Shown: one piece after another, positions 9,799-43,390 of the stretch
Layout of the letters: every line of letters starts with the position of its first letter
Position numbering within the stretch: the stretch's first letter is position 1
Origin: Sipunculus nudus
Lineage: Eukaryota; Annelida; Sipuncula; Golfingiida; Sipunculidae
Reading direction: 5' to 3'
NCBI GenBank assembly: GCA_026874595.1
Contig: CM049317.1
Location: 28,273,401-28,337,400 of the forward strand
DNA length: 64,000 bases
The notes under the pieces: generated by a model
Told to the model about the DNA's origin: nothing
Seen by the model: only the letters and a program-made list of their open reading frames with translations
Databases searched by the model: none
Made by a program: the position numbers and the translations under genes

Positions 9799-12700
9799 AT
9801 GCTCAGCTTAAACCATTGCCTTTCGATCTGCTTGAGTGTTACCTTATATATATGCATCTCTTCAGGTAATTTGAGGTTCTATTATTTTCTTTCCTTTTTT
9901 ATTAAACCTTACTTTGCAAAAAGGTACTCGTTAATATACCCTCCAGGATGTACATAAAGGTGAATTTAAAGATATGAATGTGTGGAGATGATGGAAATTG
10001 ATAATCCAGTCTTTCCAGCAAGCGTAAGTTTATTTTGTTAGATATGAATGCATAGGTAGTTTCTCTTTTGAGTTACACTGCAAACCCATTGTTTATGTAA
10101 ATGGTTATTTTGAATCCGTGTAGTTTGTTGAGGGGGAAAAAATCAAACTCTTGTTTTCAAGATTTTACATGGTGAGGATAGGCGATTAAACTAAATAATA
10201 TTTTATTTTGCACTAGATAATTCAAGTTCTTTTCGTAGGATCTACATGGTCATTCTATGTAATATTTTCATTCCACGTCCTTATTGATTAGTTGAATTTT
10301 AGTGATTTCAAACGTGATTAAGAAGGCATTTAGTGAAGGTGAAACAAATACCTGACAAGTTTATGAAACCTGTAAACTCAAATAGGGAAAATAGGAAAAA
10401 ATAACCAATGAGTTAGAATAGCCGTGTCGATTCGTGATCTTTTGATGAATGACGCAGGATGCCCTGTTGGCTGGCTAAAGTTTGAAGGATCTTGTTATCT
10501 GACTGAATCAGAGAAGACTGCTTGGTATAATGCGGACAGAAACTGTAGACATTATCGAGCCAATCTGGCGAAGATAGAAGGAGCCGAGGAAAACACTTTC
10601 CTTTCGAAAATTACATCAGAAAGGAAGTTGGAACGCGTTTCTCTGGCCAGCAAGAGGAGGACTGTTACCGGATCTCTTGCTTTTCGTAAGAGATAATCAT
10701 TATATACAAACTAGATATTCACTACATTTACTATATACAAACGATAAACAAAAATATTACGGCTGTTAAAGTTAATATATTAACTAATTTTGACTCAGTT
10801 TTGAGTTGGTATGAAAAGTTAAGATACATTAATAAGATCATGCAATTTCAGAAGGAAGCTGGAAGTGGACAGATGGGAGCATTATTGAATGGACCAACTG
10901 GGCAATTGGAGAACCTAACGGTTTCCCTGAAATTGAATACTGTCTTGAATTAATATCTGAGAGTGGTGCTTGGGATGACGGACGTTGTTATGTCCCGGAA
11001 TATTATATCTGTGAGATCAGAAAAGGTAACAATAAATTAACAAAACCTGAATGTACCACAGCAACTTGTCTGATGTTGTCATCAGCCCATTAATTTTTAG
11101 CTCAGCTGACTGTAAGTCATCTGAGCTATAGTGATCACTCTTTGTCCGTCGTCCGTGCGGCCGTCTGGCCGTCCGTCCGTTAACAGGGCACAAACTGTTA
11201 CTGCTGGACCTAGAATCCTGTAACTTGACATCCTGGAAGGTTCATAAAAAAATCTCCTTGGAAACCTGAAATTAGGTCTCTGTTACCCATATTCTTTGAG
11301 CTATGGGGCTCCGAAGTAACCCCCAGAATAATGGAAAATCTTATACAAAAGCTCAATTATCTGAATAACTAATGCAGTGATCATCATGATTTTTTGCATG
11401 GAGATTCATCATGGAGTGTTTCATCAGTTTCTGCAGTCTGGCGGCGCCACCTGTATTTTTTCGATTTTTACGAATTTTTTTCTCTATTTTTGAGACCTCT
11501 TAAGATGTGGTCATCTGTTAACAGGACACAAATCGTAACGACTTGACCTAGAATCTTCTCACTTGACCTGCGAGGAGGCCCATGAAAAGTCTCTGTGGAA
11601 ACCTGAAATTAGGTGTCTGTTACCCATAACCTCTGAGCTATGGGGTTCTAAAGTACTCCCCAGAATAATGGAAAATTTGATACAAAAGCTCAAGTATCTG
11701 AACAACTATTGTATTAATCACCATGATTCTTTGCATGGGTATTAATCAAGGAATGTTTCATTAGTTTCTGCAGTCTTGTGGCGCCACCTGTATTTTTTCT
11801 TAATTTTTACGAATGTTTTTCTCTATTTTTGAGACCTTAAGATGTGGTCATCTGTTAACAGGGCACAAATCATAATGACTGGACCTAGAATCCTCTCTCT
11901 TGACATGCTGGGAGGACCATGAAAAATCTCCTTGAAAACCTGAAATTAGGTCTCTGTTACCCATTTCCTTTGAGCTATTGGGCTCCGAAGTACCCCCCCA
12001 GAATAATGCAAAATTTGATACAAAAGCTCAAGTATCTGAATAACTACTACATTGATCACCATGATTCTTTGCATGAATATTGATCATGGGATGTTCCATC
12101 ACTTCCTGCAGACTGGTGGTGCCACCTGTATTTTTTTCCAATTTTACGATTTTTTCTATATATTTGGGACCTTCAAAGAAGCTGTCATCTGTTAACAGGG
12201 CACATATCATAACCGCTGGACCTGGATTTATCTAACTTGACATCAAGAGAGGTCCATGAAAAGTCTATGGAAACCTGAAATTAGGTCTCTGATACCCATA
12301 TCCTTTGAGCTATGGGGCTTGTAAGTACTCCTAAGAATAATTAAAAATGTGATACAAAAGCTGCAGTATCTGAATAACTAATGTACTGATGGCCATGATT
12401 TTTTGCATTCATATTAATCATGGAGTGTTTCATCAGTTCCTGCAGACTAGTGGCGCCACCTATTTTTCTTAAATTTGTACACATTTTTTTCTCATTTTGA
12501 GACTTTCAAATAAAGCGTCATCTTGTAACAGGGCACAAATCGTAACCATTTGACCTAGAATCTTCATACCTGACATCTAGGGAGCTCCATGAAAATCTTC
12601 ATGAATATCTGAGATTAGGTCTCTGTAACCCATATCCTCTGAGCTATCGGGCTCATAAATACCCCCGAAATAATTAAACATGTGATACAAAAACGGTGTT

Positions 12701-13927
12701 TGTTTCTGGAGAACTCCTCTGAGACCCTTGGACTGATCTTCCGTAACCCGGCATAGTTGTTCCCTCACCTATGTAGTTGTGCATAACATAGACATGTGGC
12801 ACCACCTGCAATCCTTTCTGGGCAGTCTGAATCTGGGTGTCTTTTAGATACCAGGCGATATCTCAGGAGTGGCTCAATGTTTTGAGCTGAAAATTAGCAT
12901 GTATACAGATCTCTCCATCTTGTAATCGAATTCAACAATCCTTGAATTCAGCTGAGCGTCATGGCCGATGGGCCACTAGTTCAATGTTATAATTGATATT
13001 AACGAATAAGGTGTATTTTTAAATGCACCATTTTACATTCATTCTGTAAATATTTGATTTTAATTGCAATTTATTGTTCCTTAACAAATACGAAGCCTAG
13101 GATAACCATTTTGAGTGAGAAGATTATCGTTCATTGATATATAATAATCATAATGCGATAGGTCTGAATCATCTCGTGCATAAACCGCTTTCTATTGGTA
13201 TCGGTGAAACTAATGATTGAGAATGCAATGTTTTGCCCTTTAGTTGATAGCAAGACCTTTTTGATACCATTTTCTAATCGCTCGACGTGAATTATTAAGT
13301 GCAAGACTGTGTATATATATACCTTATTGGCATATTAGAACAGTTAACTGCATGTTTCTCCAAACATTCAATACTTATGGTAGTTGTTACAGTTTATTAT
13401 ATTACAATGACAAGTTTAACACAGACCTGAAATATCGATATTTAAATGAACATGGTCGTATTGTTGATTTTGGAAATAATTTTTGCACGAATAATTGGAT
13501 TCTCTTTCTTTAGCCAGCAATACCAGAGTTTCTAGTGACACCATGTCTTCCATGAAAGTTTAAACGGGAATTTTGCATAACCTTCCATTGCTTTACAGCT
13601 CATGAATAAGCTCTAGAAACAGCAAAATTAATCACTATTTGTTCACCTTTATATGTGTTTTTAGATGACTGGCTCAAATCTCTTGCACGAAGTGCACACT
13701 TCGTTAAACATGACGAGAAGAGCTTGGACTTTCTTCCCTTCTTCTCAAGCACCACACGATCAACCAGGGAATGTGCCAGTCTCTGTACTCGGACACCCCA
13801 CTGTCTGGCCGCAAATATCATGCGGAAAGGTGCCAATCAAACATGTGAAATGATGAACCGTACGGAAAAAGATGGAAACGCTATCGTCATATGTGAAACG
13901 TGTAAACTAATAATTAAACAAGTGTAA
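9799..13927 (+). CDS. CTLD + PAN/apple-like secreted lectin, gene 1
   Basis: Exons: 9799-9865, 10458-10685, 10852-11025 and 13665-13927. All introns are phase 1 with GT..AG ends; the product is 243 aa. Residues 1-22 form a signal peptide (MLSLNHCLSICLSVTLYICI). Residues 24-156 form a long-form C-type lectin domain, starting CPVGWLKFEGSCYL and ending YYICEIRK. It carries the EPN motif at 119-121, which in the family usually goes with mannose-type, Ca2+-dependent binding, and WDD at 139-141 in place of the usual WND. Residues 157-243 are one exon with six cysteines (ECASLCTRTPHCLAANI, QTCEMMNRT, VICETCKLII), consistent with a PAN/apple-like module. The start is chosen because the same ATGCTCAG and exon length occur in the paralogues; an earlier in-frame ATG at 9769 is not conserved. 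Intron 3 carries a 1.9-kb minisatellite element. A role in glycan recognition is inferred from the family. Confidence 0.85.
11094..12985 (-). mobile_element. Minisatellite-bearing element, family 1, in intron 3 of lectin gene 1
   Basis: It reads 5' to 3' on the minus strand. The head at about 12945-12985 is ACTAGTGGCCC..GGCCATGACGCTCAGCTGAA. The body is about five diverged ~337-bp units, marked by TTAACAGGGCACAAA near 11180, 11518, 11856, 12192 and 12527. The tail has GGACGGACGG/GGCC-rich sequence and ends CAGTCAGCTGAGCTAAAAA. A short hairpin lies at 11099-11127 (AGCTCAGCTGACT, GTA, complement). The overall design resembles pearl/Helentron-type non-autonomous elements of molluscs; that link is inference. 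Its copies at 13930, 51479, 56429, 58039 and 61136 are on the opposite strand. Confidence 0.75.
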
Positions 13928-13929
13928 GA

Positions 13930-14816: not shown

Positions 14817-15377
14817 AACTTGAACTGATGATTACAGTTCATTGTTTAACCGTATAGGTTTACTTCCTTAAATGATGAATCCATGGCTGTATCGTGTTAT
14901 CTTGTCTGTCACTTGTCATATATAGATTTTTTGTTTGCATTTTGCATACAGTTTTAAGAAGTAGGGTTATTAGTGGTATGTTTAAAAGCAAAGTACCATG
15001 CGATAAATGTTCTTTAATGGATTCATGAATTTCTGCTATTATGGACATTTACATTTGTCGTTTGATTCAACAGACAAGTGTTCAAGGATATTGCTATTTA
15101 ACTGTGCTTTATCTATTGTAATATTGTCAAGCCTCTGCTGGATTTGATAAAGTTTCTATATAAAATGTGGATTCAAATAAATATTGGTGCAGTGGAAAAT
15201 TATGTTATTGATGTTTCTGCATGATTTTAATAAATAATCCACCTTGTAATTTACGGATCACATACAGTAGCAATGAATTAAGATCTTATGATTAAAACAA
15301 TCCAGTAATACCAAGATCTTTCTGTGATAACCAGATCTGCATGTTTGCGACAAAAGACACTCTTTTGAATAAAGACT
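14817..15377. other. Gene-free interval
   Basis: AT-rich intergenic sequence. No exon, repeat terminus or RNA gene was recognised. Confidence 0.4.
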
Positions 15378-15605: not shown

Positions 15606-16489
15606 TGAACTCTCATGACGAGATTGCTATTTTGTGGCACAGATCTCTTGACCAATCAATAACAATGCTCCCGCTTGAGTGTTTATAGCATTGGCATGTG
15701 ATATAAGACTGATAAGGCGAACAACATTTTTGAAAGCATGTCTGTCCAACATAAGAGTACAAGGAGTGTCTCGCCAACGTAAAGGTATTTGTGAAGAATA
15801 TATGCAAGTCATACGTTCGCTACATTACCTATGACTATAATGCAACCATAAAAAAGTGGATCGCTCTTAGCTCTTTCTTTGCAACATATGCATGACGACT
15901 ATAATTTAGTTCATTGTATTCTATGTATATATCCAGAGCGTGTATTGTTTAATGACCATTAAGGCATACCAAATGTGAGCGAGAACAACTAATGGTTGGC
16001 CACTGCATGATATGCTTAATCTGTTAGATCAATTCTCCTATCAGCAAATGACACCAAGACACAAGTAATAGAATTATTCTTTGTCTTGATTTCTAAATAC
16101 ATATCCATGTAAATGCTTAAAGATATTATGATGTATAAAAAGAAGAATTTATAAAATCTGCGTTGTTGTAAGATAGTAAACTTCAGAACGTTTTAATCTT
16201 TGTTTGCATCTATGTCTTGGCGGGACACGGGCGCATATTCAATATAATTATGTCATATCAAGGTCGATAGTGAAAGGCCAGTTTGATGGTTTGCTATAGG
16301 CAAGATAGCAGTTGTCTCGCTCTGTTCAATCCTTGTATGTGGATTTACATATGTAAATGTATATCTGTATAATGCACGAGTGTGGATATGTGAATGGGTA
16401 TATTAAGTAGATATATTAACTAAAATAGGATAGCAATAAATTTCTCACAAATTTTTCACTTCCTTTTTATGCCGTGGGTAAAAAAAACA
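15606..16489. other. Duplicated block preceding lectin copy 2
   Basis: From about 15762 the sequence aligns with 21557 onward (ACAAGGAGTGTCTCGCCAAC..). At 21557 this lies inside an 85-aa reading frame; here the frame is altered. The homology continues through AACACCAAGACAC and CTTCAGAACGTTTT to the R1 repeat. It marks the left end of one duplication unit. Confidence 0.6.
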
Positions 16490-16514
16490 CTTTATTATTA
16501 TTATTTTTATAATT

Positions 16515-16545
<31 letters not shown>

Positions 16546-17040
16546 TATAACGACATAAGATTGGCCATTAATGGATTGACGTGAGTAATGGCTTGATCTT
16601 GCATGACGTCAAAGCCGCCTGTACTGGGAGTGATCCCTCCTACCAATTTTGTGCACATGACAGTATGTCATCCGAGAACTCATATAAGCAAAATTAATGG
16701 AAGTGTATAAACGGCAAATGAGAGGGTATGTGCTATTAACATGAGTGGTTTATTTGTGTAACCCTGCTTGTATATCGGGGAGGATACATGGCCCTTAAAA
16801 ATATACTTGGCTGTTTGAAGGGTCTGTTGTTTATCCGCGGATTGCTATAACTTATAAAATGGCGTCGCTCTTGAAACAATTACGGGGTGATTTATTTGAC
16901 GGGTCAAAGGACATACTGGCGCTCGTATGATGATGGATACCGGTGTTTTTTTTGTATCAGCATTCAGTTTTTAAATGCCATAATTCGTGGAATAAGCTTT
17001 TAATAAATAGAAATAATAATTGAGGCACAAAAGTAAATGC
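16490..17040. repeat. (ATT)n tract and interspersed repeat R1, copy 2
   Basis: An imperfect ATT/TTA tract is followed by R1 sequence starting TTATATAACGACATAAGATTGG at about 16548. R1 blocks continue to about 16930. The element lies about 300-800 bases upstream of exon 1 of lectin copy 2. Confidence 0.7.
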
Positions 17041-17353
17041 ACATTATTATATTTATAATTGTTTGGTAAAAATTATTAATGAAGTAAATTGAAAGGCCAT
17101 TTTGCCCTTGCTTTCAAAGCTGATTGTAGTCCAAATGAAAACTGTTTTCAATAATTACCTTTAATTTTGTTCCGGTATTACTCCTTTTGTTAAAACTTAA
17201 TGTTTCAAATAGCATGGCTGGTAAACTGAAGACATGAAATAAATTTCATATGAAAGCACGGAACAAATAATCAATATCTAATTTATCTACCTGATGGGGG
17301 AACAACTGGTAAAACTGTCAGGAATCCGTCCTTGGTAGGAAACAAGAATAAGA

Positions 17354-17713
17354 ATGCTCAGACTGAACCACTGGCTTGGGAGCAGCATTCCTCTTATTTT
17401 ATATGTCTGCGTCTCTTCAGGTATTTTCTTTTTATGCTAAAGCAAATATTACAATGATGTACTAGTCAATCCACTTTCCTGGAAGTACATACAGATGGAT
17501 TTGTGTAAATGAATTTCTGATAATATTGACACAATCTTCCCCAACGGAAAGGGAAAGGCAGAAAATTACACACACGCATATATATATATATATATATATA
17601 TAAGTGGTATAGCCGTGTTAGTCTGTAGTTGAAGCGAAAGTTAAGAAAAACAGTGACGCCTTTTAGATAGACTAACTAGTTTATCTAAAAGGCGTCACTG
17701 TTTATCTTAACTT

Positions 17714-17761
<48 letters not shown>

Positions 17762-18624
17762 GTACCTCTGTTTTCAAAGACATTTTGGCATGTTCTATCA
17801 GTACAATTCAGAATGATTGTTTTTCAATCCTTTATAATGTAAAGTGTGTCCAAACAAACTCTATGAGTGTCTGACAATCCAACTGGAATGTGACTGTATG
17901 GCTCACAAGGAGAATCTTTAGTTGAACAATTTAGAACAACAAAACTTGAGCCCATAAAGTCCAAGGGCTGAAATGTGGTTTTTGCAGTCTTTAGTTGAAT
18001 ATCAAATGTAATCTTGAACAGAGTATACACACTTCAGGGATATTTTGTACGGTAGGGTTAGACTTATGCTGCTTGATATACATTCATTAAATTAGTTCGG
18101 TTGGTTAGATAAAGCAAATGCGATTTATTGCGATTATGGAAATAGATAATCTAGTCTGTTTGGCAACCATACATTTATATTGTTAGATATGATCATGAGA
18201 GCAAAGGTAGTTTTCTGTTTGGTTAACACTGCAACCAATGTTTGTTAAAATAAAAACGGGTCTTTTGCGGAAGAATAAAATGAAACTCTTTTCCTTTCAA
18301 GATTTAACTTAGTAGGAGCATGCGATTTAATTAATTATAAAATGCGTTATTGATAAATTGGCTAATTAATTAATAAAGTTAATAAATGCACTAGATGATG
18401 CAAGACCTGTTTGGATGATCTGCATGATCATTATATGTAACATTTTCATTTCCTTAAATGGTAGCGATTAATTAAATGACAATGCAGACATTGCAATAAG
18501 GACGGAGCATATACCTTGCATGTTTATAAAGCCTAGATACTCCGGTCAGGAAAATAGGAACACACAGCCGATGAGGTCGAAAAGCCATCTTGTTTCTTGA
18601 TCTTTTGATCAATCGCGCAGAATA
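17354..18624 (+). pseudogene. Lectin copy 2: exon 1 only, exons 2-3 deleted
   Basis: 17354-17420 is an intact signal-peptide exon (MLRLNHWLGSSIPLILYVCV) with a GT donor and phase 1, almost identical to exon 1 of lectin gene 3. The intron then follows the paralogue up to the exon 2 acceptor (..TCAATCGCGCAG at about 18613-18624). Instead of GGATGTCCTG.., the next bases are AATAGGTCACCTAATAT, which in gene 3 lie about 130 bases after exon 3 (near 24640). A deletion of roughly 690 bases removed both CTLD exons exactly at the splice acceptor. No PAN exon was found downstream; a LINE-like fragment follows. The locus cannot make a lectin domain. Confidence 0.8.
17578..17759. repeat. (TA)n tracts flanking an 82-bp hairpin
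   Basis: TA tracts at about 17578-17601 and 17717-17758 flank a unique segment. Within it 17635-17716 is a near-perfect palindrome: CGAAAGTTAAGAAAAACAGT continues to GACGCCTTTTAGATA, is mirrored after a loop of a few bases, and ends CTTAACTTTCG. It lies in intron 1 of lectin copy 2. The gene 3 intron has only a plain TA tract at this place (about 23056-23090), so the hairpin was gained after duplication, or lost from copy 3. Confidence 0.9.
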
Positions 18625-18639
18625 GGTCACCTAATATGT

Positions 18640-19500
18640 TACCCTGGTGCCGGATCAGGTAATAATCCTTCAAATACTATTGCCATTAATAAAATTAAGC
18701 AGGGAAATGTTTAAGACTGAAGTTTAAAATGGGTAGCAGCGCCTTCCTGGTGATGGGACGGAGGCAATGAGTCTCGTGCGAGGCGATTTAACGAAACTTT
18801 GTAGCCCCATTTTTGCTTCAACCTTCAAGTTTAAAGAATGTTAAATGTCAGCACAAACACCAAGGCAACATAACAAAGCAGGAGCCAGACTGAAGGACAA
18901 ATTTAGTCTTAATCATAGCTCTGCCAATGGCAACAGTCCAACAGAATAGGTCACATGCCTATTATCACGTGTAGGGACTTTGAAAAGGAACTAATTGATG
19001 TCACAAAAAGAGTTGATCACATTGAAACAGGAAGCAATATACTGAAATCTAAATGTGAGCATTTAGAGTTATGGGAAAGGTGTGAGTACATGATAAAGGA
19101 GACGTCAAGAATAAAGTGTGATACGAAAGAGGATTTGTGAATAAAGAGAGCTCATAGCCTGTCGAGGGTAAAGAAACAGGATAAACCAAGACAGTTAGTG
19201 AGAAATTTGTTAAAGACAAGTAGGAGGTGTTACAAAAGGCAAGAAAGAAACTTAAATACTGTTACATCAAAGTGAACAATGATTTAAGTCAATAGCTCAG
19301 GGAGCAACGTCGCAATCCTATTTCAAGCATGTTGAAGGCTCGCAATGATTTCACACAAAAAAATTTTACATCTCCTTTGATAAATTTATAGACAATTATA
19401 AAAAAGGGAAAAAAACAACAAGCGTTTACTTTCTGTAGGTAAATATTTAGAAAATTATTAGGGATTGGGTCAAGGTCCAAACAAGAATTATTTGTAATAA
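18640..19500 (+). pseudogene. Degenerate LINE-like ORF1 fragment, copy 1
   Basis: Translation pieces resemble the coiled-coil/RNA-binding ORF1 protein of LINE elements: ELIDVTKRVDHIETGSNIL, then ERCEY, RAHSL, KPRQ and, in another frame, EVLQKARKKLKYCYIKVNND followed by LREQRRNP. Frameshifts and stops interrupt it throughout. A more complete copy starts at about 26616 and runs in parallel. Assignment is by pattern memory only. It sits where the rest of lectin copy 2 should be. Confidence 0.45.
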
Positions 19501-20723
19501 GAGGAAAACAATTGCAAAACTATAATTACTGCTTAAATGAAGCTTTAAAACACACACACACATATATATATATATATATTAAATGTTTATGATATATTAA
19601 TAAAAACTCCATAATAGACATGTAATAACAGTTTATATGATGACAATATAGCTTCAGCCACTGTAATATGTTTGTCAATTTTATAATGTATGCTGTGAAA
19701 TGAGAATTTGTTAATACCGTCCATTAATGCTCTCCTTGTTAGCTCTTACAAAATTGCGTTACAAACAGATAGACTGATTTCCACCGAAGAGTCCACCGGT
19801 AATCGCTTTACATTGATAGAAATAGAAAACAACATGTTAAGCTTGAACTCCCTTTTTCCATGTTAGTTCCCTTGATTGCATCTTTTTCCGATGCCTCAGG
19901 TTATCCCTTTTGTCATTATCTATTTGGGTACACTACTTTTAAAATAAATGTTAAACCTGTGAAACACATGAATTTGTGAAGCTCATTTTAAAGAACATGA
20001 AAGTATCGCAAACCATTTTCTCTTTTTCTTTGAGAAGAAGGTACAACGAAAATACCAATCAATGCATGTATGAACTATAGAATTTAGTATGCTATTGTTT
20101 GTGCATCATCATTCGAACAAAACTCGTAGTATTACTACGGCGGAAAGATAAAACCTTAACTATTGATTATTGCTGTAAAATGTATATTTTCACACCCATG
20201 TTAGGCCGATTCTGCCAAGAAAAAAAAATTCTCATTTATCATTATCTGATTGTCCTTTGGCGACTAATGATCCCATGTATGGACATACCACATCACCTAA
20301 ATCTATTTGCTTAATACATTTTGCGATCAACTAATAAATGTCTTAAGTCGTATTTTTTCATCTTTTGAAATGTTTGTCTAATGCATTATGCGTTCATAAA
20401 GGTAGCAATATGCTTATTATTTCCTATATACGTAAGTTTACTTCAACTGGCTTGCAGACTGCGATCTTTGTGATATACAACACGTACAATTTGAATCATT
20501 TTTATTCATATATCTCAGAATTTAACTGCTGAGAGGTAAGTACTTGGTATTCAAAGGGTATATTATAAATAAACCAAAATCAAAAAAGAAAATCCGATAA
20601 TACCACCATGATAAACATGTATTCTTCTCATTAGTCAACCTTCAGGGGACATTAACCTTCATAATCAATAATTGCTATGATTATAACGATTATACTACTA
20701 CTATTACCACAACTTCTATCACC

Positions 20724-20764
<41 letters not shown>

Positions 20765-21385
20765 TAATTAATAATAATAATCATCATAATAATAATAATA
20801 ATTTCAACTATATGAAGACGAAAAAGGAAATAATTTAATGTAAAATATAAATAGATAAAATAAATACAAAGACGTGCTCAAATGTTGGATTTCCGAACAG
20901 AAGAACAGATAACAGAAATGTCATTTATCCATTTCAACCAGACCATGCGCATATGGCAGGACCGCACTTTGGAATCTAATACTTATACATGAATATATAT
21001 ACGTCGTCCTATGAATAATGTGAGTTCCATGACGGACACACTTAAGGATGAATGAAAACATCAAACTAAAACCTCTGGGAAGTGACCTTTTCGGACATAC
21101 GGACTACGCCTGTAGACTACGCATAAGGACCACGTAGCCGTAAATTCTCCAGTTTTCCGCTTCATCGGTCTTTCAATCACAATTTTTGTACAGAATGCTA
21201 AAATTTGCAATGAAGAACATTACAGTTAACACTCTGCTTTGATTTGAGCTTGATGAAGAAGATATTGAATATTCCAATCTTTGAATATCTATATAGCGAC
21301 CAGTCTATTAGCATTTGCGTATCTCCAATGAATGGAATAATAAACCATTTCCTTATTTCCTATATATATATATATATATATATCA
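19501..21385. other. Segmentally duplicated non-coding block
   Basis: No gene recognised. From about 19540 the sequence aligns with 28800-29330 (e.g. TGATGACAATATAGCTTCAGCCACT and GGGTCCACCGGTAATCG). From about 20300 it aligns with 30990-31770 (e.g. ACATTTTGCGATCAACTA and CGGACTACGC.TGTAGACTACGCAT). An (AAT)n tract occupies about 20723-20805 in this copy only. Confidence 0.65.
20723..20805. repeat. (AAT)n microsatellite
   Basis: About 25 AAT/ATA-type triplets with a few interruptions. Confidence 0.9.
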
Positions 21386-21410
21386 GTGAGGGATATGCAA
21401 GTAAAGCGAA

Positions 21411-21668
21411 TTGATTAACGAAATAACTAATCTGTCTTACTTGTCCAAACATATATATGAGACACATCAGAACATAAGCCATACCAGAATATCCGCGGCC
21501 CTGGTTGAAGGTTATTTTGATGGTCCTAACTCCTCGCATGAAAATGAAGACGTGTACAAGGAGTGTCTCGCCAACATAAAGGTATTAGTGCAGAATATAT
21601 GCCAGTCATTGTATGTCTCCATTACCTATGGCTATAATGCAGAAATACAAAAACTGGTTCGCTCTTAG
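21411..21668 (+). CDS. Unrecognised 85-aa reading frame in a duplicated block
   Basis: An 85-aa open frame with central HTRISAALVEGYFDGPNSSH and C-terminal YKECLANIKVLVQNICQSLY. I recognise no family. Its first half aligns with about 31840-31955, and its second half with about 15762-15845, where the frame is disturbed. It straddles the boundary between two duplication units, so it may be a terminal exon of an unrecognised gene that was duplicated with the lectins, or chance. No signal peptide is present, and no splice acceptor could be fixed. Confidence 0.25.
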   Translation: MINEITNLSYLSKHIYETHQNISHTRISAALVEGYFDGPNSSHENEDVYKECLANIKVLVQNICQSLYVSITYGYNAEIQKLVRS

Positions 21669-22139
21669 CTCTTACTTTGCAACAAATGCATGACGATCAT
21701 GGTTTAGTTCATTGTATTCTATGTATATATTCCGAGCATGTATTGTTAGAGACGCTTTAATGATGTTAGTAAAGCAAATAAGATGTGAGCGAGAACTACT
21801 GATAGTTTGGCCACTGCAATTTTGCTAATAATATTCTTAATCTGTTTAATAAAGTCTTCTTTTAGCAAATAACACCAAGACACAGATTATAGAATTATTC
21901 TTTGTCTTGATGTCTTAATACATATCAATGTACATGTTTAAATATATACTGATGTATGGAAAGAAGGATTTATAAAATCTGGGTTGCTGTAAGATAATAA
22001 ACTTCAGAACGTTTTCTGACGTATCTATGTTATGATGGGACACGGGCGCCAAATCAATATTATTATGTCATACCAAAGGATCACATAGTGTTAGCTAGTG
22101 AGAGGCCAGTTTAATGGTTTGTAATTTATATACAAATAT

Positions 22140-22520
22140 ACAATTTTGTATACATGACAGTATGTCATCTGAGAACTAATTTAAGCAAAATTAATGGAAG
22201 TGTATAAACGGCGAATGAAAGGGTATGTGCTATAACACGAGTGGTTTATTTGTGTGACCCTGCTTGTATATCGGGTTGGGTACATGGCCCTTAAAATATA
22301 CTTGGCTGTTTGAGAGTGTCTGTATTTATCTGCTGGTATATAAAATTCATAAAATGGCGTCGGTCCTGGAACAATTCCGGGGTGAATTATTTGAGGTTCA
22401 AAGGACATACTGGCGCTCGAATGGGGATGGATATCGGTGTCTTTTTTGTATCAGGATTCAGTTTTTAAATACCATAATACGTAGAATCTCTAAATAAATT
22501 GAAAAAAAATTGAGGCACAA
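22140..22520. repeat. Interspersed repeat R1, copy 3
   Basis: Aligns with 16650-17000, starting CATGACAGTATGTCATC, but lacks the first ~100 bases and the ATT leader of copy 2. Like copy 2 it lies just upstream of a lectin exon 1, so it was probably carried by the segmental duplication. Confidence 0.7.
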
Positions 22521-22863
22521 AAAAAATGCACATCAGTTATAATATTTATAATTGTTTGGTAAAACATTTTATGTACTAATGAAGTAAATTGAAAGGCCAT
22601 TCTGACCTTGCTTTCAGAGCTGATTGTAGTCCAAATTGAAACTTTTTCAATAAATTATCTTTTATTTTGTTCCGTTATTGCTCCTTTTGTTAAACTTTAT
22701 GCTCCTTACATGTTTTAAATAGCATGTCTGGTAAACTGAAGACATGAAATCAATTTCATATGAAAACATGGAACAAATAATTAATATCTGATTTGTCTAC
22801 CTCATTCGGGAACAACCGGTAAAACTGTCAGGAATCCGTCCTTGGTAGGAAACAGGAACAAGA

Positions 22864-23048
22864 ATGCTCAGACTAAACCACTGGCTTGGGAGCTGCATTC
22901 CTCTTATTTTATATGTCTGCGTCTCTTCAGGTATTTTTTTATACTCAAGAAAATATTATAATAATGAACTCGTCAATCCACTTTCCTGGAAGCACATAAA
23001 GATGAGTTTGTGGAAATGATTTTCTGATAGTGTTGATAGGGAACGGCA

Positions 23049-23095
<47 letters not shown>

Positions 23096-25258
23096 TATAC
23101 ATATAACTCTGTTTTCAAAGACATTTTGGCATGTTCTATCAGTATAATTCAGAGTAATTGTTTTAAAACCTTTATCATGTAAAATGTGTCCAAACAAACC
23201 TGATGAGTGTCCGAGAATCCAAGTGGGATGTGATTGTGCGGCTTACAGAAGAATCTTTAGTTGAACATTTTAGATCAACTAAACTTAAGTCCACACAGTC
23301 GAAGCGCTGAAATGTACAGTCTTTAGTTGAATATCAGAGTTAATATTATTAATATCACAGAGTATACACACCCGAGGGGTATTTTGTACAGTAGGGTTAG
23401 ACTTAAGATGCTTGATAAATTCAATTAAATTAGTTGGCTTGGTTAGATAAGGGAAATGCGTTTTGTTGCGATTACGATAATAGATAGTCATAATAAGCAT
23501 ACATTTATATTGTTAGATATGAAGGTACAGGAAGTGTTTGTTTGATTAACACTGAAACCATTGGTGTTCAGATGGTTAAAGTAAATACGAACATTTTGGG
23601 GAAGAATAAAATGAAACTCTTTTGCTTTCAAGATTTAACTTAATAAGAGCATGCGATTAAATAAATCATAAAATGTGTTAGTGATAAATTGGCAAATAAA
23701 TTAATAAAGTAAATGAAATATATTGACTAGATGATGCCAGATCTGTTTGGATGATCTGCATGATCTTTATATATAACATTTTCATTTCCATAAATGTTAG
23801 CGATGAAATAAATGACAATGCAAACATTTCAATAAAGATGAGCAAATGCTTTGCATGTATATTATGCCAAGATACTCCAGTCAGGAAAATAGGAACAAAC
23901 AGCCGATGAGGTACGAAAGCCATATTGTTTTTTCTATCTTTTGATCAATCGCGCAGGATGTCCTGTTGGCTGGCAGGAGTTTCAAGGAGCTTGTTATCTG
24001 ACTGAAGCAGAGAAGACCTCTTGGAATAATGCAGATAAAAACTGCAGACAGTATCGAACCCATCTAGCGAAGATAGAAAAAGCCGAGGAAAACAAATTCC
24101 TTTCGAAAATTGCATATGAAAGAAAATTCGAACGCGTATATCTGGCCAGCAAGAGAAGGACTGATGTCGGATCTCTTCGTAAGACAAGATACACTATATT
24201 CATCCTAAATATTGTATATACAAACGATACACCATATTGTAACTATTGTGATGGTCAATCTTTTCACTTACTTTGATTCAGTTTCGAGTTTGTATGAAAA
24301 CATATCCATGAATAAACATATGCGATTTCAGAATTAAATTGGAATTGGACAGATGGAAGCATTATTGAATGGACCAACTGGGCAACTGGAGAACCTAACG
24401 GCTTCACTGAAAGTGAATACTGTCTTGAATTAATCTCTAAGAGTGGAGCTTGGAATGACGGACGTTGTTATATCCCGGAATACTATATTTGTGAGATCAG
24501 AAAAGGTAACAATAGATTAATAAACATCCGAATATACCGCAGCTACTTGTCAGATGTTTTTTCGGGTCTTTACCAGTGCAATGAATATTATTTATAATTG
24601 CTTATTTTATATTATTCAATTATGTGAATTTTATAAAATAGGTCACCTAATATATTTCCTGCAGTTTTTTATTCTCATGACAACTGGATTTTTCTTTAAT
24701 ATACACGATGCGTAAAGATATCATTGTTGGAGATGATAATCAAATATAGATTTTAAAAAAAATGCGTTAAAAAATTGAATCTGAAAAACCTCATGTATAA
24801 ATTGCTTTCTATATAGGTATCTTGAAAGCGATTTTATTTTAAAAACATTTTTAAATTTTTTTATTCAAATCAGTGATTTCAAAGGATTTTTTTTTGTATA
24901 TGCGCATTGAATTTTACCTTATGAATGAGATCTGGAAACCGCAAAACCTTACATGTAATTAATTCCTATTTGCTTACCTATATGTATGCTTTTAGATGAC
25001 TGGCTCAATGTCCTTGCACGCAGTGCACACTTCGTTAAACATGACGAGAAGATCTTGGACCTGATTCCCTTCTTCTCAGGCACCACACGCTCCACCAGGG
25101 ATTGTGCCAGTCTATGTACTCGGACCCCCCACTGTCTGGCCGCTAATATCATGCAGAATGGGACCAAACAAACATGTGAAATGCTGAACCGTACGGAAAA
25201 TGATGGAAAAACTATCGCCATATGTGAAACTTGTGAACTAATAATTAAACAAATGTAA
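22864..25258 (+). CDS. CTLD + PAN/apple-like secreted lectin, gene 3
   Basis: Exons: 22864-22930, 23957-24178, 24332-24505 and 24996-25258; phase 1 introns with GT..AG ends; 241 aa. Signal peptide MLRLNHWLGSCIPLILYVCV. The CTLD starts CPVGWQEFQGACYL and has the six cysteines of a long-form domain. It has EPN at 117-119 and canonical WND at 137-139, so the Ca2+/sugar site looks complete. The last exon gives DDWLNVLARSAHFVKHDEK followed by six cysteines, nearly the same as gene 1. Gene 3 has a compact 490-base intron 3 where gene 1 has 2.6 kb with an inserted element. The fit in exon lengths (67, 222, 174 and 263 bases) makes the model secure. It is the copy in this window with the best-preserved binding motifs. 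Confidence 0.87.
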
Positions 25259-29778: not shown

Positions 29779-30020
29779 AGATGAGTGGCTGAATTTCCGT
29801 GCAAGCATGTGTTCATTTTGTTAGATACGAAGGTATTACCGTGGACATAACACCCTTCTTCCAAGTACAACCCGATCCACTACGTAACGTGCATTCTCTG
29901 AGCTAGGACACCCATGTGTTTGGCGGCAAAAATATTGAAAGAGCTGAGCATTCACGCGTAATGTTGAATCACGCAGGTAATGATAAATAACTGATTCGTG
30001 CGTGTGAACCTTGTGAGTAA
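29779..30020 (+). pseudogene. Decayed PAN/apple-like lectin exon
   Basis: After a T-rich acceptor-like TTTTTTAG, the translation gives DEWLNFRASM.. and continues in shifted frames with TTRST, HP and NVES-type remnants of the lectin last exon. Several stops and frameshifts destroy it. DNA similarity to 24996-25258 is still plain (e.g. CCCTTCTTC, ACCCGATCCACTA). No CTLD exons were found upstream, so this is a relic of a fourth plus-strand copy. Confidence 0.75.
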
Positions 30021-31764
30021 TCTAAAGAACATGTTCAATATTTATCATTTATTAAAAAATATTATTTATACATTTTACCGCTTCTCAATTTTGACAGTTT
30101 TGCAACTGATATATGAATATATTAAATAATTAGCCTTTTTCCGTCGCACTTTACCAAATACATATTGTCGGAGTATAATAATTAGTCTGAATTTTTGTAT
30201 TGGCAAATATTTTGATAACATTTTATGATAAATAATAGGAAAAAATGTCTTAAGAAGTTGTCTACCTAAAACCATAGTATTCGATGCTTTTATTGGTGAG
30301 GGTTGAAGTGAAACAATGGCTTTTTAAAAGTGTTGACATATAAGAATATTTATGTAACGTGTGCATTCATATCTACGGACCCGTAACATATATAACCCGT
30401 AACTTTGAGAATGTTAATTGGAAATCAAGCCGATGTGGCGTTTGTTATTCTTCTCGGTGGAGGAATAAAACATTATATGATGCTTTCATCGTACATACCT
30501 AGTATTTACTACAAAGCAGCGTTTTGTGCATTCATTTATACCATTATTGTTTAACATTTTTTTTCAGTTTTATTTATTGTCATACTGTCATTCTTAATGC
30601 AGGTATCAGTCTTTCAGAATATTGCTTTAATAAACATTGCTGAACTTATAATTCTGAATGAGGTTCATTTGTGTGAGAAGAAAAATATACTTCTTTTTGT
30701 TTTTGCTATGTATTTACTACTGCCATAATCTCTTAAAAGAAAGGTTGATAATGTATGCGGCATAAAATCTATACATATTACAGAGCATGTTCATTGGTAC
30801 TTGATATCATGAATGCTGATACTTTTAATTTTGACTTTGGTGTATTTTCTCTGATTAAAACAAAATGTGGTTACAAGTTCAATCAGTAGATCATTGAAAC
30901 AGTGGTGCAATTTACCCTACTAAAATGGGAAAGGCGAGGGAGTCAAAATAATTTTCCTATATCGGACATTTTTCGAGTCTCATGCACATACCGCATCACC
31001 TTAATTTATTTGCTTACACATTTTGCGATCAACTATTCAATGGCTTCAGTCGTATGTTTTTATCGTTTGACATGTATGTTTCATGCATTATGCGTTCATA
31101 AAGGTAGCCAGATCCTAATGATATCCTATATAAATAAGTTTCCTTCAACAGGCTTGCAGACTAGGATCTTTGTGATATACAACGTACTTTTCGAACCATG
31201 TTTAATCATATAGCTGGGAATTTCACTGCTGAGAGATAAGTCCTCGGTATTAATGGATATATTTTAATTAACCAAAATCATAAAAGGAAATCCGATAAAA
31301 CCACCATGATAACATGTATGCTACTCATATGCTAATATGTTGGACTTCCGAAGAGGATAACAGAAATCTCATTAAGCCATTTCAACCAGATTATGCGCAT
31401 ATGGCAGGACCGAACTTTGTGATTGTTATGCGTCGTGCACTTCAGGATGAATAAAAACCTCAAACTGAAACCTCTGGAAAGTGACCTTTTCGGATATACG
31501 GACTACGCGTGTAGACTACGCATACGGACAACGTAGCTTGAAATTCTCCAGTTTTCCACTCCAGCAGTCTTTCAATCACATTTTTTGTTCAGAATGCTAA
31601 ATTTGCAATGAAGAACATTACGGTTTACACTCTGCTTTGATTAAAACTTGATGAAGAAGATATTGAATTTTTCCATCTTTAACTATCTTTATAGTGGGCA
31701 GTCTATTGGCATATGCGTATCTCTAATGAATGGAATAATAAGCCATTTCCTTATTCAATAGTTG

Positions 31765-31825
<61 letters not shown>

Positions 31826-32220
31826 TGAGGGTTTTAAAGCGAAGCGAATTGATTAAAGAAATCTGTCTTATTTGTCCATACATATATGAGACACATCAGA
31901 ACATAAGCCGTACCAGAATATCCGCGGCCCTGGTTGAAGGTTATTTTGATAGTCCTAACTATTCTAATTGTCTGAGAAAGTATGTGATGTAAACCACCAG
32001 GGTTCTGCTGCAATAAAACTTAACTGGACTCAAGCAAAGTAGCAGGCCTAACTACCATTGTCACAATCGTGACGTCATAATGGTTGCCACAGTGAAACAC
32101 ATGCCCCTGGCTAAATTCACATTATTGCAACTGGCCACCAGATGTGCATAGCGAGTTAAAACATGTTAATGGAGTTTAAAAATATTAATGATCCCTCTCC
32201 TGCATAGTTCATAAACAAGA
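30021..32220. other. Intergenic, partly duplicated
   Basis: About 30990-31965 aligns with 20300-21530 and includes a long (TA)n tract at about 31768-31822. The alignment ends near GGTTATTTTGATAGTCCTAAC. No gene recognised. Confidence 0.55.
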
Positions 32221-32394: not shown

Positions 32395-34331
32395 TTATAT
32401 ATGTTTGATTATTAGTTCACAAGATTCACAACTTTTCATTGGTATCCCATCCTTTCCCGTACGGTTCAGCATTTCACATTTCTGTGTGGCCCCATTCAGT
32501 ATGACGTTTGCGGCCTGACAGTGGGGTGTCCTGGCACAGAGTTCGGCACATTCCTTCCTAGAAGCAGTGTTACTTGAGAAGAATGGGGTTACTTCCAAGA
32601 ACATCCGCTCCCGCTTGGTAAAATAGGTACCACGGACAAGTGAATTGAGCCAGTAATCTGAAACCAAGTTATATGAATAATCCTAAAAAATTTAAATGTA
32701 CAAATATTTGAATAATTAAATAAAGCGAACAATCCATAAACTAAGTAACTTCAGTTCGAATGTATAACCCATACAATATGAATTAATACTGTTTAAGTAT
32801 GTTCATTCTTGTACAGATAGACAAAAGAAGATAGTAGGGATAAACTAATTCTTCACAATTAAAATTGAAGATTATCAAGGAATCTGTATGAACAGAAATC
32901 CTTATTTAGTATTCTCTGTGTATCGCACCATGCTGCGACTTATTTTGCATTGACACTGCGAATTTTTATCTGTTTTTTAAGATTAAGACTCAACATCATT
33001 ACGTCTCGAACCGTCATAAATATAACATAAAAATGTGCATGCGCCAAGAAAGTACGATAACATCCGGGTCAATAATATAAGAAAAATAACATTTTCTAAA
33101 AATATTTCTGGTGGTGACTTGTACTATAACAGTACCTTTACTCAGCTCACAGATATACTTATCCGGAATGAAACATCGTCCGTCATCCCACAGACCATGT
33201 TTTGTAGGAATAATCTGAAGACAGTCTTGATCTCCGTCAAAGCTATTTGGTTCCCCTGTATCCCAGTTAGTCCATTCAACTAAACTTCCATCCGTCCACA
33301 TCCATGTTCCTTCTATAATTGGAGCTAAAGATATACATCTTTCAACAGGTCACATGAAAATAAATTGGTTTAATCTTAGATTCTTGTTAACAATTTTGTA
33401 TTTTGCAGGCGGTTAAAACAGACAAAATGATCTTACACAGTTACCCCCCCCCCCCCCTTGTATAAAACTGACCGCTGACAATATCACTGCCTCCAATCCA
33501 TGCATATTTCCACTCTTTGACAGAGTTAGCAATGTATAGGTTTTCGTCCATTGCAGCTATCTTTGTAAGTTGAGCCTGATACTCTTTGCACCTTAGGTTT
33601 GCATCATTCCACAAGGAGTTAGTTTCTTCATTGAGATAACAAGCTCCATCGAATTCAATCCAGCCAATCGGACAACCTGTTATATCAATTAAACGGAAAA
33701 TAAACAGCTTGATTTTCGCCGTTGTCAAATTGTCCATATTTTAAAATGGGCCATGATCCAAAAATCGCCGTGCTGATCCAGTATTGGATTTACTCAAAAC
33801 AACCGTGTTTAAATTGATATATTGATTCACCAGTTAAGGTCTTTTAAGAATAAAAGGGTAATTAATTTAATTTTTTTACGGATTAATATTTTTGTAGTTT
33901 GATTTATGGTCAAAATATATTGCACGGCATACTCTCTACCTGATTAAAACCGGGTAAAATACATGGGAACAATTCTCATCTCAGACTGTCATCAGAAGTG
34001 TTATTTTAACGTTTAACTTGATTCCTTAACTTCGTGAATAAGATACAAAAAGATAATATATAATATGAAATTTTAAGATATGAAGTAATCTACTTTACTT
34101 TCATTCCTATATACTTAAAGGCCAGAAAAAATGACTTGCATTTGTAAATAATATTATTCTAATTTCAATATTGAGGTCGATAATCCCTATTAGCATAGAA
34201 CCTTCCCGATTGGAGTGTAACATAATTAAATGGCTGGTCTAAGGTAAAATGACCAAATGAAATTTACCTGATGAAATTACAAAATAGAGAATGACTGAGA
34301 AACCGATGGAGAACTGCTTGTTCTGCTCCAT
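32395..34331 (-). CDS. CTLD + PAN/apple-like secreted lectin, gene 5 (opposite strand)
   Basis: Exons on the minus strand: 34331-34268, 33676-33473, 33312-33136 and 32657-32395; GT..AG introns, all phase 1; 235 aa. Signal peptide from MEQNKQFSIGFSVILYFVIS. The CTLD begins GCPIGWIEFDGACYL and includes WKYAWIGGSDI, a more canonical WIG core than the KRRT-type segment of genes 1 and 3. EPN is at 110-112 and WDD at 131-133. The PAN-like exon has exactly the same length (263 bases) as in genes 1 and 3 and keeps its six cysteines, with ECAELCARTPHCQAANV. The CTLD is clearly diverged from the plus-strand genes, so this is an older paralogue. A poly-C tract (33444-33458) lies in intron 2 next to the donor. 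The same-strand frames at 33014 and 33441 read into introns. Confidence 0.87.
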
Positions 34332-36249: not shown

Positions 36250-36904
36250 GATAAGAAACTGCTTAAATGGGAATTAATTAAGCAATCCGGAAGTTTGAGA
36301 ATAGAAGGCTATGGCAAGCATTATTTCAACGTGCGCTATGTTTGGTCCTGGGCTTCCCCCGCGGTACAGTACTAGGTTTTCCCTTTCGCGTAATAGCTGT
36401 GAGCGGTAACGCGATATCGGCAAAATTCGGGACGCACTTGAGTTTTCGTTTTTGGTCGCTCACAATCCTGTATTTTCTTTAGAAGTCGGGGATTTGTCGC
36501 CAATGCACCATCGCCTACATGGTGACCCAAAATTCAACATTGTTAAACCCAATGAAACATTTTGAGGGTCTAACTGACAAGTTGGCTTTCTCCAGCATAT
36601 GGAGAACAATCTTTAAGGTTTTAGTATGCTCAGAACAAGACTGGTGATGGTTGAGTTAATCGTCCATAAAATACAGGACGTTAGGGACTCCCTGAAATAA
36701 CCTTCTGACCAATCTGGTGAACCATTGTGCCGAATTTACTAATCCGAACGGCATAACCACGAAACGGTATAGGCCATTTGGTGTGACAAATGCCGTTAAT
36801 TTATTTGAATTTTCGGCCATCGCAATTTGCAAATAACCCCTGCTCATGTCTAATTTAGACAGATATTTACTACTCGTGAATAATGGGAACAAGAACTTTG
36901 TCAC
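36250..36904 (-). pseudogene. Reverse transcriptase fragment of the Gypsy element
   Basis: Starts abruptly at ..LFTSSKYLSKLDMSRGYLQI (catalytic Asp in KLD), continues with VTPNGLYRFVVMPFGLVNSA and reaches the active-site FMDD near 36656. After that come shifted-frame remnants PSKC, NVEF, VPNFADIALPLTAITRKGK, typical of the RT C-terminus and connection. The fingers region before KLD is missing because integrase sequence is joined directly in front. Confidence 0.78.
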
Positions 36905-38040
36905 CTACCTTCAAATCTCTGCTACTGGTTGTAATAGATTTTATACCTACCAGCCTCTTTCGCAAGGTTTTTTTTCTGGCTAATTTTAGGGTTTCTGACA
37001 GACGGTTCTGTAAATCAACTACATATTGGTAGGTACTCTTGACTTCTGGCTCTACTTTCTTCTGCGTTAGAATTGTCATGGACCCCCTAACAAACCTCCC
37101 ATACAACAGCTCGAATTGACTGAATCCGAGAGATTCGTGTGGCGCTTCCCTACAGCAAAACAGTAACGCTGGAAAGTAGCTGTCCCAATCTCGAGGCCTC
37201 TCTGCTGTCATACGTTTGAGCATCTGCTTGAGCACATCATTGTGCTTCTCGGTCATACGATTTCAGATCGGATGTCCGACTGTACAAGTCAGCAGATAAA
37301 TAGAAAGGAGACGACTTACCTCTCTCATCAGATTCGAGGTAAACTGCGTGCCTTTTTCTGTTAAGACCTTAGATGGCACACCTACCCTTAAGTAAACCTC
37401 AACTAATGCCTCTGCCACTGTCTCTGTATCAATGTTCTTTAGTGGGACAGCCTCGGGATACCTTGTGGCATAATCCATTTTTGTGAGCTCATACCTGTAA
37501 TCCCTGTCGGATGGAGAATGGATAGCTCCGGTTATATCAAGCGCTATGCGTTAAACGGGGTATCCATTATCGGCGTACGTCCTAAAGGTACAACCTGACA
37601 ATTTTACCTTTCGGCGAAGTCCTCTGGCTAATCCCACAAAACCAGCAAAACATACGTACCTCCTCGTACATACCAGGCCATTGGAATTGGCTCCTAATGC
37701 GGTCATTAGTATGGCTGATTCCCTGATGCCCCACCATTAGTGTCTCATGACCCATTTTTTAAGATATCACGCCTGCAGTAAGCAGGCATGATTAACTTAT
37801 CACCTTGCCTCAAATGGCTCTTCTCTAGACGTCTTCTCACAGGAAAATTATTCTTTATAAGGAATTGGTACTTACTACCTTTCGGTGGAGGTTCTTTAGC
37901 CTTCTGACATAGATACGACAGAGAATCAGCCTCCTGCTGGTACTTAAGAAACTGGTCAGGACTTACTTCGCCAATCTGGCTTTGAACCTGCAAAGTTAAA
38001 GTCGGTTTATCCTTCTGCACACGCATCATCTGTGACAATT
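36870..38040 (-). pseudogene. Integrase of the Gypsy element, broken
   Basis: Pieces in order: pre-integrase linker with SPDQFLKYQQEADSLSYLCQ (about 38038-37745); integrase core starting MDYATRYPEAVPLKNID with VGVPSKVLTEKGTQFTS (37478-37263); then an in-frame stop, followed by MTEKHNDVLKQMLKRM through LKVGDKVLVP (37256-36870). The core normally carries D, D and E. Here the second Asp position (LTD.GTQF in the family) reads Glu (LTEKGTQF), a likely inactivating change. The zinc-binding segment between linker and core is scrambled. Confidence 0.8.
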
Positions 38041-38198
38041 ACCTCCGTAGCTGCAGCTTCAGCCTTACCAACAAAGGCTAGCAATTAATTCTACGTTATC
38101 CAAAAAGATCAGACCCTCTGCGCAAACAATCAAAATGAGATGGTAATCTTGTACATAAATGTTATTTGTCAAATGCTCCCTACGGCCCTTTTATTGGT

Positions 38199-38214
38199 CT
38201 CTTCGCGGTCGCCA
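38199..38214 (-). other. Primer-binding site of the Gypsy element
   Basis: TGGCGACCGCGAAGAG on the minus strand, beginning with TGG, the usual complement of a tRNA 3' CCA end. It starts two bases after the LTR. The cognate tRNA was not identified. Confidence 0.7.
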
Positions 38215-38216
38215 AA

Positions 38217-42100: not shown

Positions 42101-43213
42101 GCATTGCGCTTTCGTGTTTTACACAACCAAATGGGACTTTTGGTGTTTAAAAAGGTTTTATGTTACGTGATATCCTTGACTAACTAGGGTCTCAGCTGTT
42201 TTCCTGCGATATTGGCGATAGTGATGATCAGTTCAGCGATACAGTGGAGTCCCAAGAAACGTGTGTGTCACAGGTATATTTTATAACTTCAAACACGATT
42301 ATATTAAAGATAATGAGATAAGCAAGTGTATTGTGCTGGGAACCTAAGCATGCACTTAATGATGAATATGATTATGTTGATGATGATGATGATGGCTTGA
42401 TCCTATTACTTTTAGTCAGCATTCCCCTTTACGTGTACAGCATAAAACAAATATTTCCAGGGAACATATCCCTGTGCACGTATACGAATGTGACAAAGAA
42501 AATGGACACACTGTATTCTTCTTGACATTCCATTAATGCGTGTGTTGCAATATTTTAATATACGCACATGGCATTAAATTAAATGAAAATAGTACAATCA
42601 AAATAATAATTATTTAATTACACCTATCATACAATTTAATATAATTAGACCGTACAGGTGACATTCTAAATGGTATTGCAAAATATTAACCACTTTTTTT
42701 AAATTTTAATCAGTTGTCGATAGACATGTACATGTAGACAATGTAAATATACAATAACAGTGGGCAAATCACACAGGTGAGTCATGTATAATTTTCTTAG
42801 TTAAATTTGAAAGTATGCAAGATGTCTCAATAACGCAGGGTTAATTTCCGATATTGGTCACTATAAGTCAAGTAACTCCTGATGCGTGAAAGCAGGAGGC
42901 AACAATTGGAACGTTCTGTTCTTAGAAATATATTGAGCAAAAAGTTATTAGTATCTGATCTTAAGTAACGGCCTTGGCTGGCCATCATCTCAAGGGCACT
43001 TAATATCCACTTTGCAAGTGCAAAGGATACAAGTTGTACAAGTTATGTTGATTTTTAAGAGAATTATATGAAAGAGGTAACTACCTCCAAGAGTCAGTAT
43101 AGCTTGACCGTTTTCAAAGATATAAATAGTTCTACAATAGGGAATAGACCTCTTTAAAATAAAATAATGATACTATAAAAATATATGACATAAAATTGTG
43201 CTTTCAAATTTAG
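39160..43213. other. Gene-free interval
   Basis: AT-rich. No recognised exon except a weak candidate on the minus strand at about 41690-41850 (GGDWSSEEVKEIKEIGKNL..) preceded by CACTGTCATTAG. It has no partner exon and no family match. Confidence 0.4.
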
Positions 43214-43390
43214 AAGCAGTTTGGAAATGGACTGATGAAGGTACAATCAGCATGACCAACTTGGCCCTCGACGAACCAAACAATTTTAAGAAAAAGCAAG
43301 ACTGCTTCCAGATGATACTTACAGAGAAAGGTCTTTGGGATGACAAAAACTGTAATTTTACTAAATATTATATTTGTGAACTGGACAAAG
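43214..43390 (+). pseudogene. Orphan C-type lectin exon (second half of a CTLD)
   Basis: A single exon of 177 bases, phase 1 at both ends, with a TTTAG acceptor and a GTGAT donor. It matches exon 3 of lectin gene 5 in length. It encodes AVWKWTDEGTISMTNLALDE, then EPN, QDCFQMI, GLWDDKNC and YYICELDK. The sequence is intact and keeps EPN and WDD, but I found no signal peptide, CTLD first half or PAN exon within several kilobases on either side. It may be a relic, or part of a gene whose other exons I could not see. Confidence 0.7.

What the first reader, a model, noticed from the sequence alone, without database searches (positions are those of the whole stretch)
9799..43390. Cluster of CTLD+PAN lectin genes with intact, broken and inverted copies
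Three intact genes share one architecture (signal peptide, long-form CTLD with EPN, six-cysteine PAN/apple-like exon of exactly 263 coding bases, all phase 1 introns). Around them lie a deletion pseudogene, a decayed PAN exon and an orphan CTLD exon. CTLD plus PAN in a single short secreted protein is an uncommon pairing, and the cluster suggests rapid gene turnover, as expected for recognition or immune lectins. The function is inference.
Basis: partly seen in the sequence, partly recalled or inferred. Interest (0 to 1): 0.7.

Follow-up and report, generated by a model that had tools for sequence, protein, structure and literature searches.

The report
Small cluster of lectin–PAN secreted genes
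An animal genome, probably a clam's, carries a small cluster of genes that join a sugar-binding (C-type lectin) domain to a plasminogen-like PAN domain, with broken copies beside them; the genes look real and selected to stay intact, but the domain pairing is already known elsewhere and the immune role is unproven.

Summary

Across the 1.43-Gb genome the same CTLD–PAN order recurs at four more loci: about seven members found, not a large expansion. dN/dS of 0.31-0.46 says the proteins are maintained.

Three corrections. The six cysteines are four PAN-core cysteines plus a C-terminal CxxC, not the six-cysteine apple pattern. CTLD+PAN is already known (C. elegans class IV) and appears separately in this genome. 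A and B have lost the WIGL-type motif.

Best reading: secreted Ca2+-dependent lectins of a bivalve-like animal, probably mucosal or hemolymph recognition proteins. Function is inference.

Noticed outside the window: a mobile, possibly herpesvirus-like element with a Mutator-type transposase and CTLD and CARD genes, 46 near full-length transposase copies.

The parts
9799..9865 (+). gene A exon 1, leader (signal peptide by eye)
   Evidence: ATG, hydrophobic leader, GT donor, phase 1; no signal-peptide predictor was run
10458..10685 (+). gene A exon 2, CTLD N-terminal half
   Evidence: AG..GTAAGA, Lectin_C hit
10852..11025 (+). gene A exon 3, CTLD C-terminal half, EPN and WDD
   Evidence: AG..GTAACA, Lectin_C hit
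13665..13927 (+). gene A exon 4, PAN domain, 263 nt with stop
   Evidence: PAN_1 20.3 bits; AlphaFold model and structure match
11179..12692 (.). 337-bp tandem repeat inside the gene A intron before the PAN exon
   Evidence: Tandem Repeats Finder, 4.5 copies, 81% matches
17354..17422 (+). deletion pseudogene: surviving leader exon
   Evidence: tblastn and block alignment; CTLD and PAN exons are missing past about 18620
15757..21531 (+). tandem unit that holds the deletion pseudogene, a diverged copy of 21554-31960
   Evidence: blastn, about 75-86% identity over pieces
22864..22930 (+). gene B exon 1, leader (signal peptide by eye)
23957..24178 (+). gene B exon 2, CTLD N-terminal half
24332..24505 (+). 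gene B exon 3, CTLD C-terminal half, EPN and WND
24996..25258 (+). gene B exon 4, PAN domain
   Evidence: PAN_1 17.5 bits
29774..30017 (+). decayed PAN exon, stops in all three frames
34268..34331 (-). gene C exon 1, leader (signal peptide by eye)
33473..33676 (-). gene C exon 2, CTLD N-terminal half with WIGG motif
33136..33312 (-). gene C exon 3, CTLD C-terminal half, EPN and WDD; a second in-frame acceptor lies 12 nt upstream
32395..32657 (-). gene C exon 4, PAN domain
   Evidence: PAN_1 20.7 bits
43219..43395 (+). orphan CTLD exon 3 (EPN, WDD), open frame
   Evidence: Lectin_C 36.2 bits; 49% identical to gene C's exon

Best explanation
These are three apparently working genes for short secreted C-type lectins with a C-terminal PAN domain, plus the debris of their duplication, in a bivalve-like genome.

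Shown: the exon structure with intact splice sites and frames, the CTLD, the PAN fold by prediction, recurrence of the same order at four other loci, and purifying selection between copies. Inferred: the protein leaves the cell, binds Ca2+ and mannose-type glycans through the EPN site of the CTLD, and uses the PAN domain (with its conserved C-terminal CxxC) as a second binding or assembly surface. It would then form multivalent lectins in hemolymph or mucus that tether microbes or food particles.

I put the identity at about 0.95 and the recognition/agglutination role at about 0.45.

For: The same order on one strand recurs at C12:17.06, C10:17.83, C2:42.88 and C12:56.07 Mb, and the last one's PAN exon is over Pfam's cut-off (34.0 bits). 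dN/dS is 0.46 (A/B), 0.31 (A/C) and 0.34 (B/C). CTLDs of PAN-bearing genes group together: 77/82 with all 7, 92/98 for A-F when the long rows G and H are left out.
Against: There are no transcripts, so splicing is inferred from sites and homology. PAN_1 is below Pfam's cut-off in all three window genes. Foldseek's best E-value is 5e-3 with none at 0.001 or better. Two of the five AlphaFold models are poor (mean pLDDT 61.7 and 53.9). In the PDB profile search no single stretch of factor XI passes on its own. A and B lack the WIGG/WIGL-type motif kept by C-G, so their CTLDs may fold or bind differently. Only B has WND; A and C have WDD. Support for a single origin of the family is moderate. Nothing here tests sugar binding, Ca2+ dependence or infection response.
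Confidence: 0.6

Rival explanations
1. The proteins are mucosal lectins for sorting and capturing food particles rather than for immunity. Gill or mantle mucus lectins bind algal glycans.
For: Secreted, EPN mannose-type lectins fit. The bivalve review's section on other CTL functions has a passage that ends on particles leaving as pseudofeces (PMC12842671, passage).
Against: No expression data by tissue. The same anatomy fits immunity equally.
Confidence: 0.2
2. The cluster is largely decaying. A and B are on the way to pseudogenes and only C-like members work.
For: A and B lack the WIGG motif. A deletion pseudogene, a decayed PAN exon and an orphan exon lie among them.
Against: Between A and B, dN/dS is 0.46 overall (0.37 in the CTLD, 0.49 in the PAN exon; 0.88 in the short leader), with no stop and all splice sites kept at dS 0.26.
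Confidence: 0.15
3. They are shell-matrix or biomineralisation lectins.
For: Some bivalve C-type lectins act in mineralisation (HcLec1, title and abstract start in the listing).
Against: No acidic or repetitive mineral-binding region is seen by eye in the three sequences.
Confidence: 0.08
4. The CTLD exons and the PAN exon belong to separate transcripts, and their closeness is chance.
For: No transcript evidence; the intron before the gene A PAN exon is 2.6 kb and holds a tandem repeat.
Against: The same order and strand at 7 loci, phase-1 match in A-C, and no start-and-leader exon seen for the PAN exon itself. Elsewhere, 5 of 112 PF00024 hits lie within 10 kb of a listed split-type CTLD hit against 0.27 expected under uniform placement (one of the 5 is gene G, one is on the opposite strand, one has PAN upstream).
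Confidence: 0.04

Closest known systems
C. elegans CTLD class IV (1-2 CTLD + 1-2 CW/PAN_3), PMC5297725
   Same: CTLD and PAN-type module in one protein; 16 such proteins in C. elegans (table passage)
   Different: That table names the PAN_3/CW type. Here A-C fit PAN_1 best, with one CTLD and one PAN at the C-terminus. Relationship not tested.
Bivalve C-type lectins with EPN (e.g. codakine, AiCTL-3, MyCLF), PMC12842671
   Same: CTLD with EPN motif. MyCLF has EPN with WDD like A and C (table passage).
   Different: The review's Figure 2 legend lists signal peptide, CTLD and transmembrane region for bivalves, no PAN domain (passage)
PAN modules of plasminogen, HGF, factor XI/prekallikrein and leech anti-platelet protein
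   Different: About 11-27% identity in those rows; an added C-terminal CxxC; fused to a CTLD, not to a protease or kringle
CTLD-PAN arrangement at C14:17.52 Mb in the same genome
   Same: CTLD exons followed by a PAN exon on the same strand
   Different: Its CTLD does not group with this family, but it is a long row whose place is unsure, so a separate origin is likely, not shown

Membership tests
C-type lectin domain (PF00059) | profile match over the curated cut-off | tested here: met
   55.5, 63.4 and 62.3 bits against 22.6 in 3 of 3 proteins
C-type lectin domain (PF00059) | long-form six cysteines | tested here: met
   six in the CTLD of A, B and C; gene D lacks one of them. The pairing is recalled, not shown.
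C-type lectin domain (PF00059) | WIGL-type core motif | tested here: inconclusive
   WIGG in C, WLGG in D, WIGG in E, WMGG in F, WLSG in G; replaced in A and B. The motif's name is recalled.
mannose-type Ca2+/sugar site | EPN with WND | tested here: inconclusive
   EPN in A-E and the orphan, not in F or G; WND only in B, WDD in A, C, D, E, F, G and the orphan. EPN with WDD is tabulated for scallop MyCLF.
PAN/apple (PF00024) | profile match over the curated cut-off | tested here: not met
   20.3, 17.5 and 20.7 bits against 21.4 in A, B and C; D 16.5, E 20.7, F 14.4; met by relative G, 34.0 bits. I therefore claim PAN fold and homology, not a Pfam-grade hit.
PAN/apple (PF00024) | PAN fold | tested here: met
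apple domain with six cysteines | extra cysteine pair joining the N- and C-terminal ends | tested here: not met
   no cysteine before the core; the two extra ones are a C-terminal CxxC (alignment). The apple pattern itself is recalled.
C. elegans CTLD class IV | CTLD with CW/PAN_3 module | tested here: inconclusive
   same pairing; among A-F PAN_3 was the best model only for F and below cut-off; no nematode sequence was compared
secreted protein | signal peptide, no transmembrane segment | not tested
   read by eye from the leader; no predictor was run
immune lectin | expression in immune tissue, binding to microbes | not testable with these tools
   no RNA or protein data held

The most novel reading that the evidence does not exclude
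A small lineage-specific family of CTLD-PAN lectins in which the C-terminal CxxC of the PAN domain (kept in A-F, absent in G) links chains into multivalent lectins, with A and B a new CTLD branch that discarded the WIGL-type core motif yet stays under selection.
Probability: 0.15. Interest if true: 0.5.

Novelty: new member of a known kind. Interest (0 to 1): 0.3.

Why it matters
It adds a well-defined CTLD+PAN lectin family to the large bivalve C-type lectin repertoire. One window shows intact, deleted and decaying copies side by side, which is useful for studying how lectin genes duplicate and die. It is not a new kind of system.

Tried and rejected
A compensated frameshift as the cause of the lost WIGG motif in A and B: pairwise exon alignments did not settle it.

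A first tree (95/100 for the seven) had one wrongly stranded outgroup row (L006) and was replaced, whose support is lower.

In one search the gene B query and exons 3 and 4 of gene C were read in a wrong frame; models were corrected.

Species identification: 17 large contigs and 1.43 Gb suggested a Mya-like bivalve, but the one paper search for Mya truncata gave one unrelated paper; it stays a guess from recall.

Literature on CTLD+PAN in molluscs: one search found no paper; some searches listed 15, 20 and 15 of 68, 310 and 561 papers, one search listed 3 of 3. No title or abstract start shown describes a mollusc CTLD+PAN protein; most papers found were not listed. Papers opened: PMC10140915 (section 8 and passages); PMC12842671, PMC5297725, PMC3269628, PMC10175614 and PMC12373286 (passages only).

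The chance estimate uses typed approximate chromosome lengths and uniform placement and ignores gene clustering. Its CTLD list holds the 126 hits and 63 of the 151; single-exon and dispersed-element hits were left out. Adding 30 single-exon hits gave no further pair on the chromosomes checked against 12 PAN hits.

Full report
Setting. The window is C12:28273401-28337400 of a 1.43-Gb assembly with 153 contigs, of which 17 appear in the hit list.

What is there. Genes A (+), B (+) and C (-) each have four exons: leader, two CTLD exons and a 263-base PAN exon (stop included). All introns are GT-AG in phase 1 and the proteins are 243, 241 and 235 aa. All three match Lectin_C well above its cut-off and PAN_1 below its own. 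B is 77% and C 49% identical to A.

Broken copies. Block 15757-21531 repeats 21554-31960 in pieces at about 75-86% identity; one 99-base piece is inverted. Its leader exon survives at 17354, but the CTLD and PAN exons are gone after the acceptor at 18620. A PAN exon at 29774-30017 has stops in all three frames. An orphan CTLD exon at 43219-43395 is open and matches Lectin_C (36.2 bits); no partner was found in the window or the next 20 kb.

Family in the genome. Gene C's PAN exon finds 6 places (34 of 34 candidates scored): three in the window, one each elsewhere on C12, on C10 and on C2. It missed gene G's PAN exon, so 6 is a lower bound. Gene C's CTLD exon finds 126 places (150 of 701 candidates scored); the nine best are the same loci plus the orphan, C12:56.07 Mb and C17:40.29 Mb. 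At C12:17.06 (D), C10:17.83 (E), C2:42.88 (F) and C12:56.07 Mb (G) both CTLD halves and a PAN exon follow in order on one strand. Leader exons there were not identified; the only leader query gave a low-complexity match near D and one weak match near E. G's PAN exon passes Pfam's cut-off (34.0 bits), a bridge to canonical PAN; the PAN exons of A-F are not among the 112 listed there. D also has a decayed second PAN exon about 5.5 kb downstream. At C17:40.29 Mb no PAN exon was found in 10 kb. So the family is about seven genes among a much larger CTLD set, not a big expansion.

Selection. Nei-Gojobori dS and dN are 0.26 and 0.12 for A/B, 1.26 and 0.39 for A/C, and 1.09 and 0.37 for B/C: ratios 0.46, 0.31 and 0.34, the last two with dS near saturation. 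This is constraint. It gives no sign of overall diversifying selection, though only pairwise averages were computed, and the short leader of A/B is near neutral (0.31 against 0.35).

Origin. CTLDs of the seven genes fall on one side of a branch with 77/82 support; without G and H, A-F do so with 92/98. The CTLD of the C14:17.52 Mb arrangement does not join them, but it is a long row of unsure place. At C9:7.90 Mb CTLD, PAN and CTLD exons alternate. Of 112 PF00024 hits, 5 lie within 10 kb of a listed CTLD hit, 0.27 expected; one of the 5 is G, one is on the opposite strand and one has PAN upstream.

Function. EPN is kept in A-E and the orphan; F and G have lost it. WND is only in B, with WDD elsewhere. 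A and B replace the WIGG-type motif that C-G keep. I read C as the most typical lectin of the three and A/B as a derived branch. Secretion, Ca2+ dependence, mannose preference and assembly through the CxxC are inference from family knowledge.

Known or new. CTLD+PAN is a class of 16 proteins in C. elegans (PMC5297725, passages). The two bivalve papers opened describe large CTLD repertoires without a PAN module in the parts seen; one of them reports uncharacterised bivalve-specific multidomain CTLD proteins whose domains I did not see. I rate it a new member of a known kind.

Noticed in passing
outside the window: C5:66.524-66.554 Mb (L037, L027, L038) and other places: A dispersed virus-like mobile element: dense intronless frames on both strands, a 607-aa FLYWCH+MULE transposase, proteins with CTLDs (perhaps membrane-bound, by eye), CARD and CARD+RING proteins, and an 879-aa frame with a sub-cut-off match to the herpesvirus processing and transport protein (PRTP 21.0 bits against 24.6). 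The transposase has 46 near full-length copies at 98-100% identity among 74 listed matches (72 of 472 candidates scored), 2 of the 46 with an internal stop. Four 10-kb loci share 94-98% DNA identity in long pieces and 90-92% in shorter repeated ones. It resembles Teratorn (herpesvirus + piggyBac; abstracts' starts) but with a Mutator-type transposase. Searches listed no such fusion (12 of 14, 4 of 4 and 8 of 20 papers shown). Herpesvirus identity rests on one weak hit; 4 of the 7 further frames scanned had no Pfam match, and the terminase search did not complete.
   Followed up: partly
36659-38038 (-): Retrotransposon fragment: integrase core lies upstream of reverse transcriptase on the minus strand (rve 30.2 bits, just below cut-off 32.6; RVT_1 49.6 bits), an unusual order for a Ty3-type RT, as recalled for Gmr1-like elements; could also be a rearranged copy.
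   Followed up: no
11179-12692 and 53949-55834: 337-340-bp tandem repeats, related to each other in inverted orientation, one inside gene A's last intron.
   Followed up: no
52303-53822 and 63132-63965: 280-bp tandem repeat family in two arrays about 10 kb apart; the second runs to the window's end.
   Followed up: no
L019 6384-6628 (C12:17.066 Mb): A decayed second PAN exon about 5.5 kb after gene D's intact one, echoing the decayed PAN exon after gene B.
   Followed up: partly
L034 (C9:7.90 Mb): Exons in the order CTLD, PAN, CTLD and a sushi-like frame on one strand, perhaps a mosaic receptor; the sushi label is by eye.
   Followed up: no
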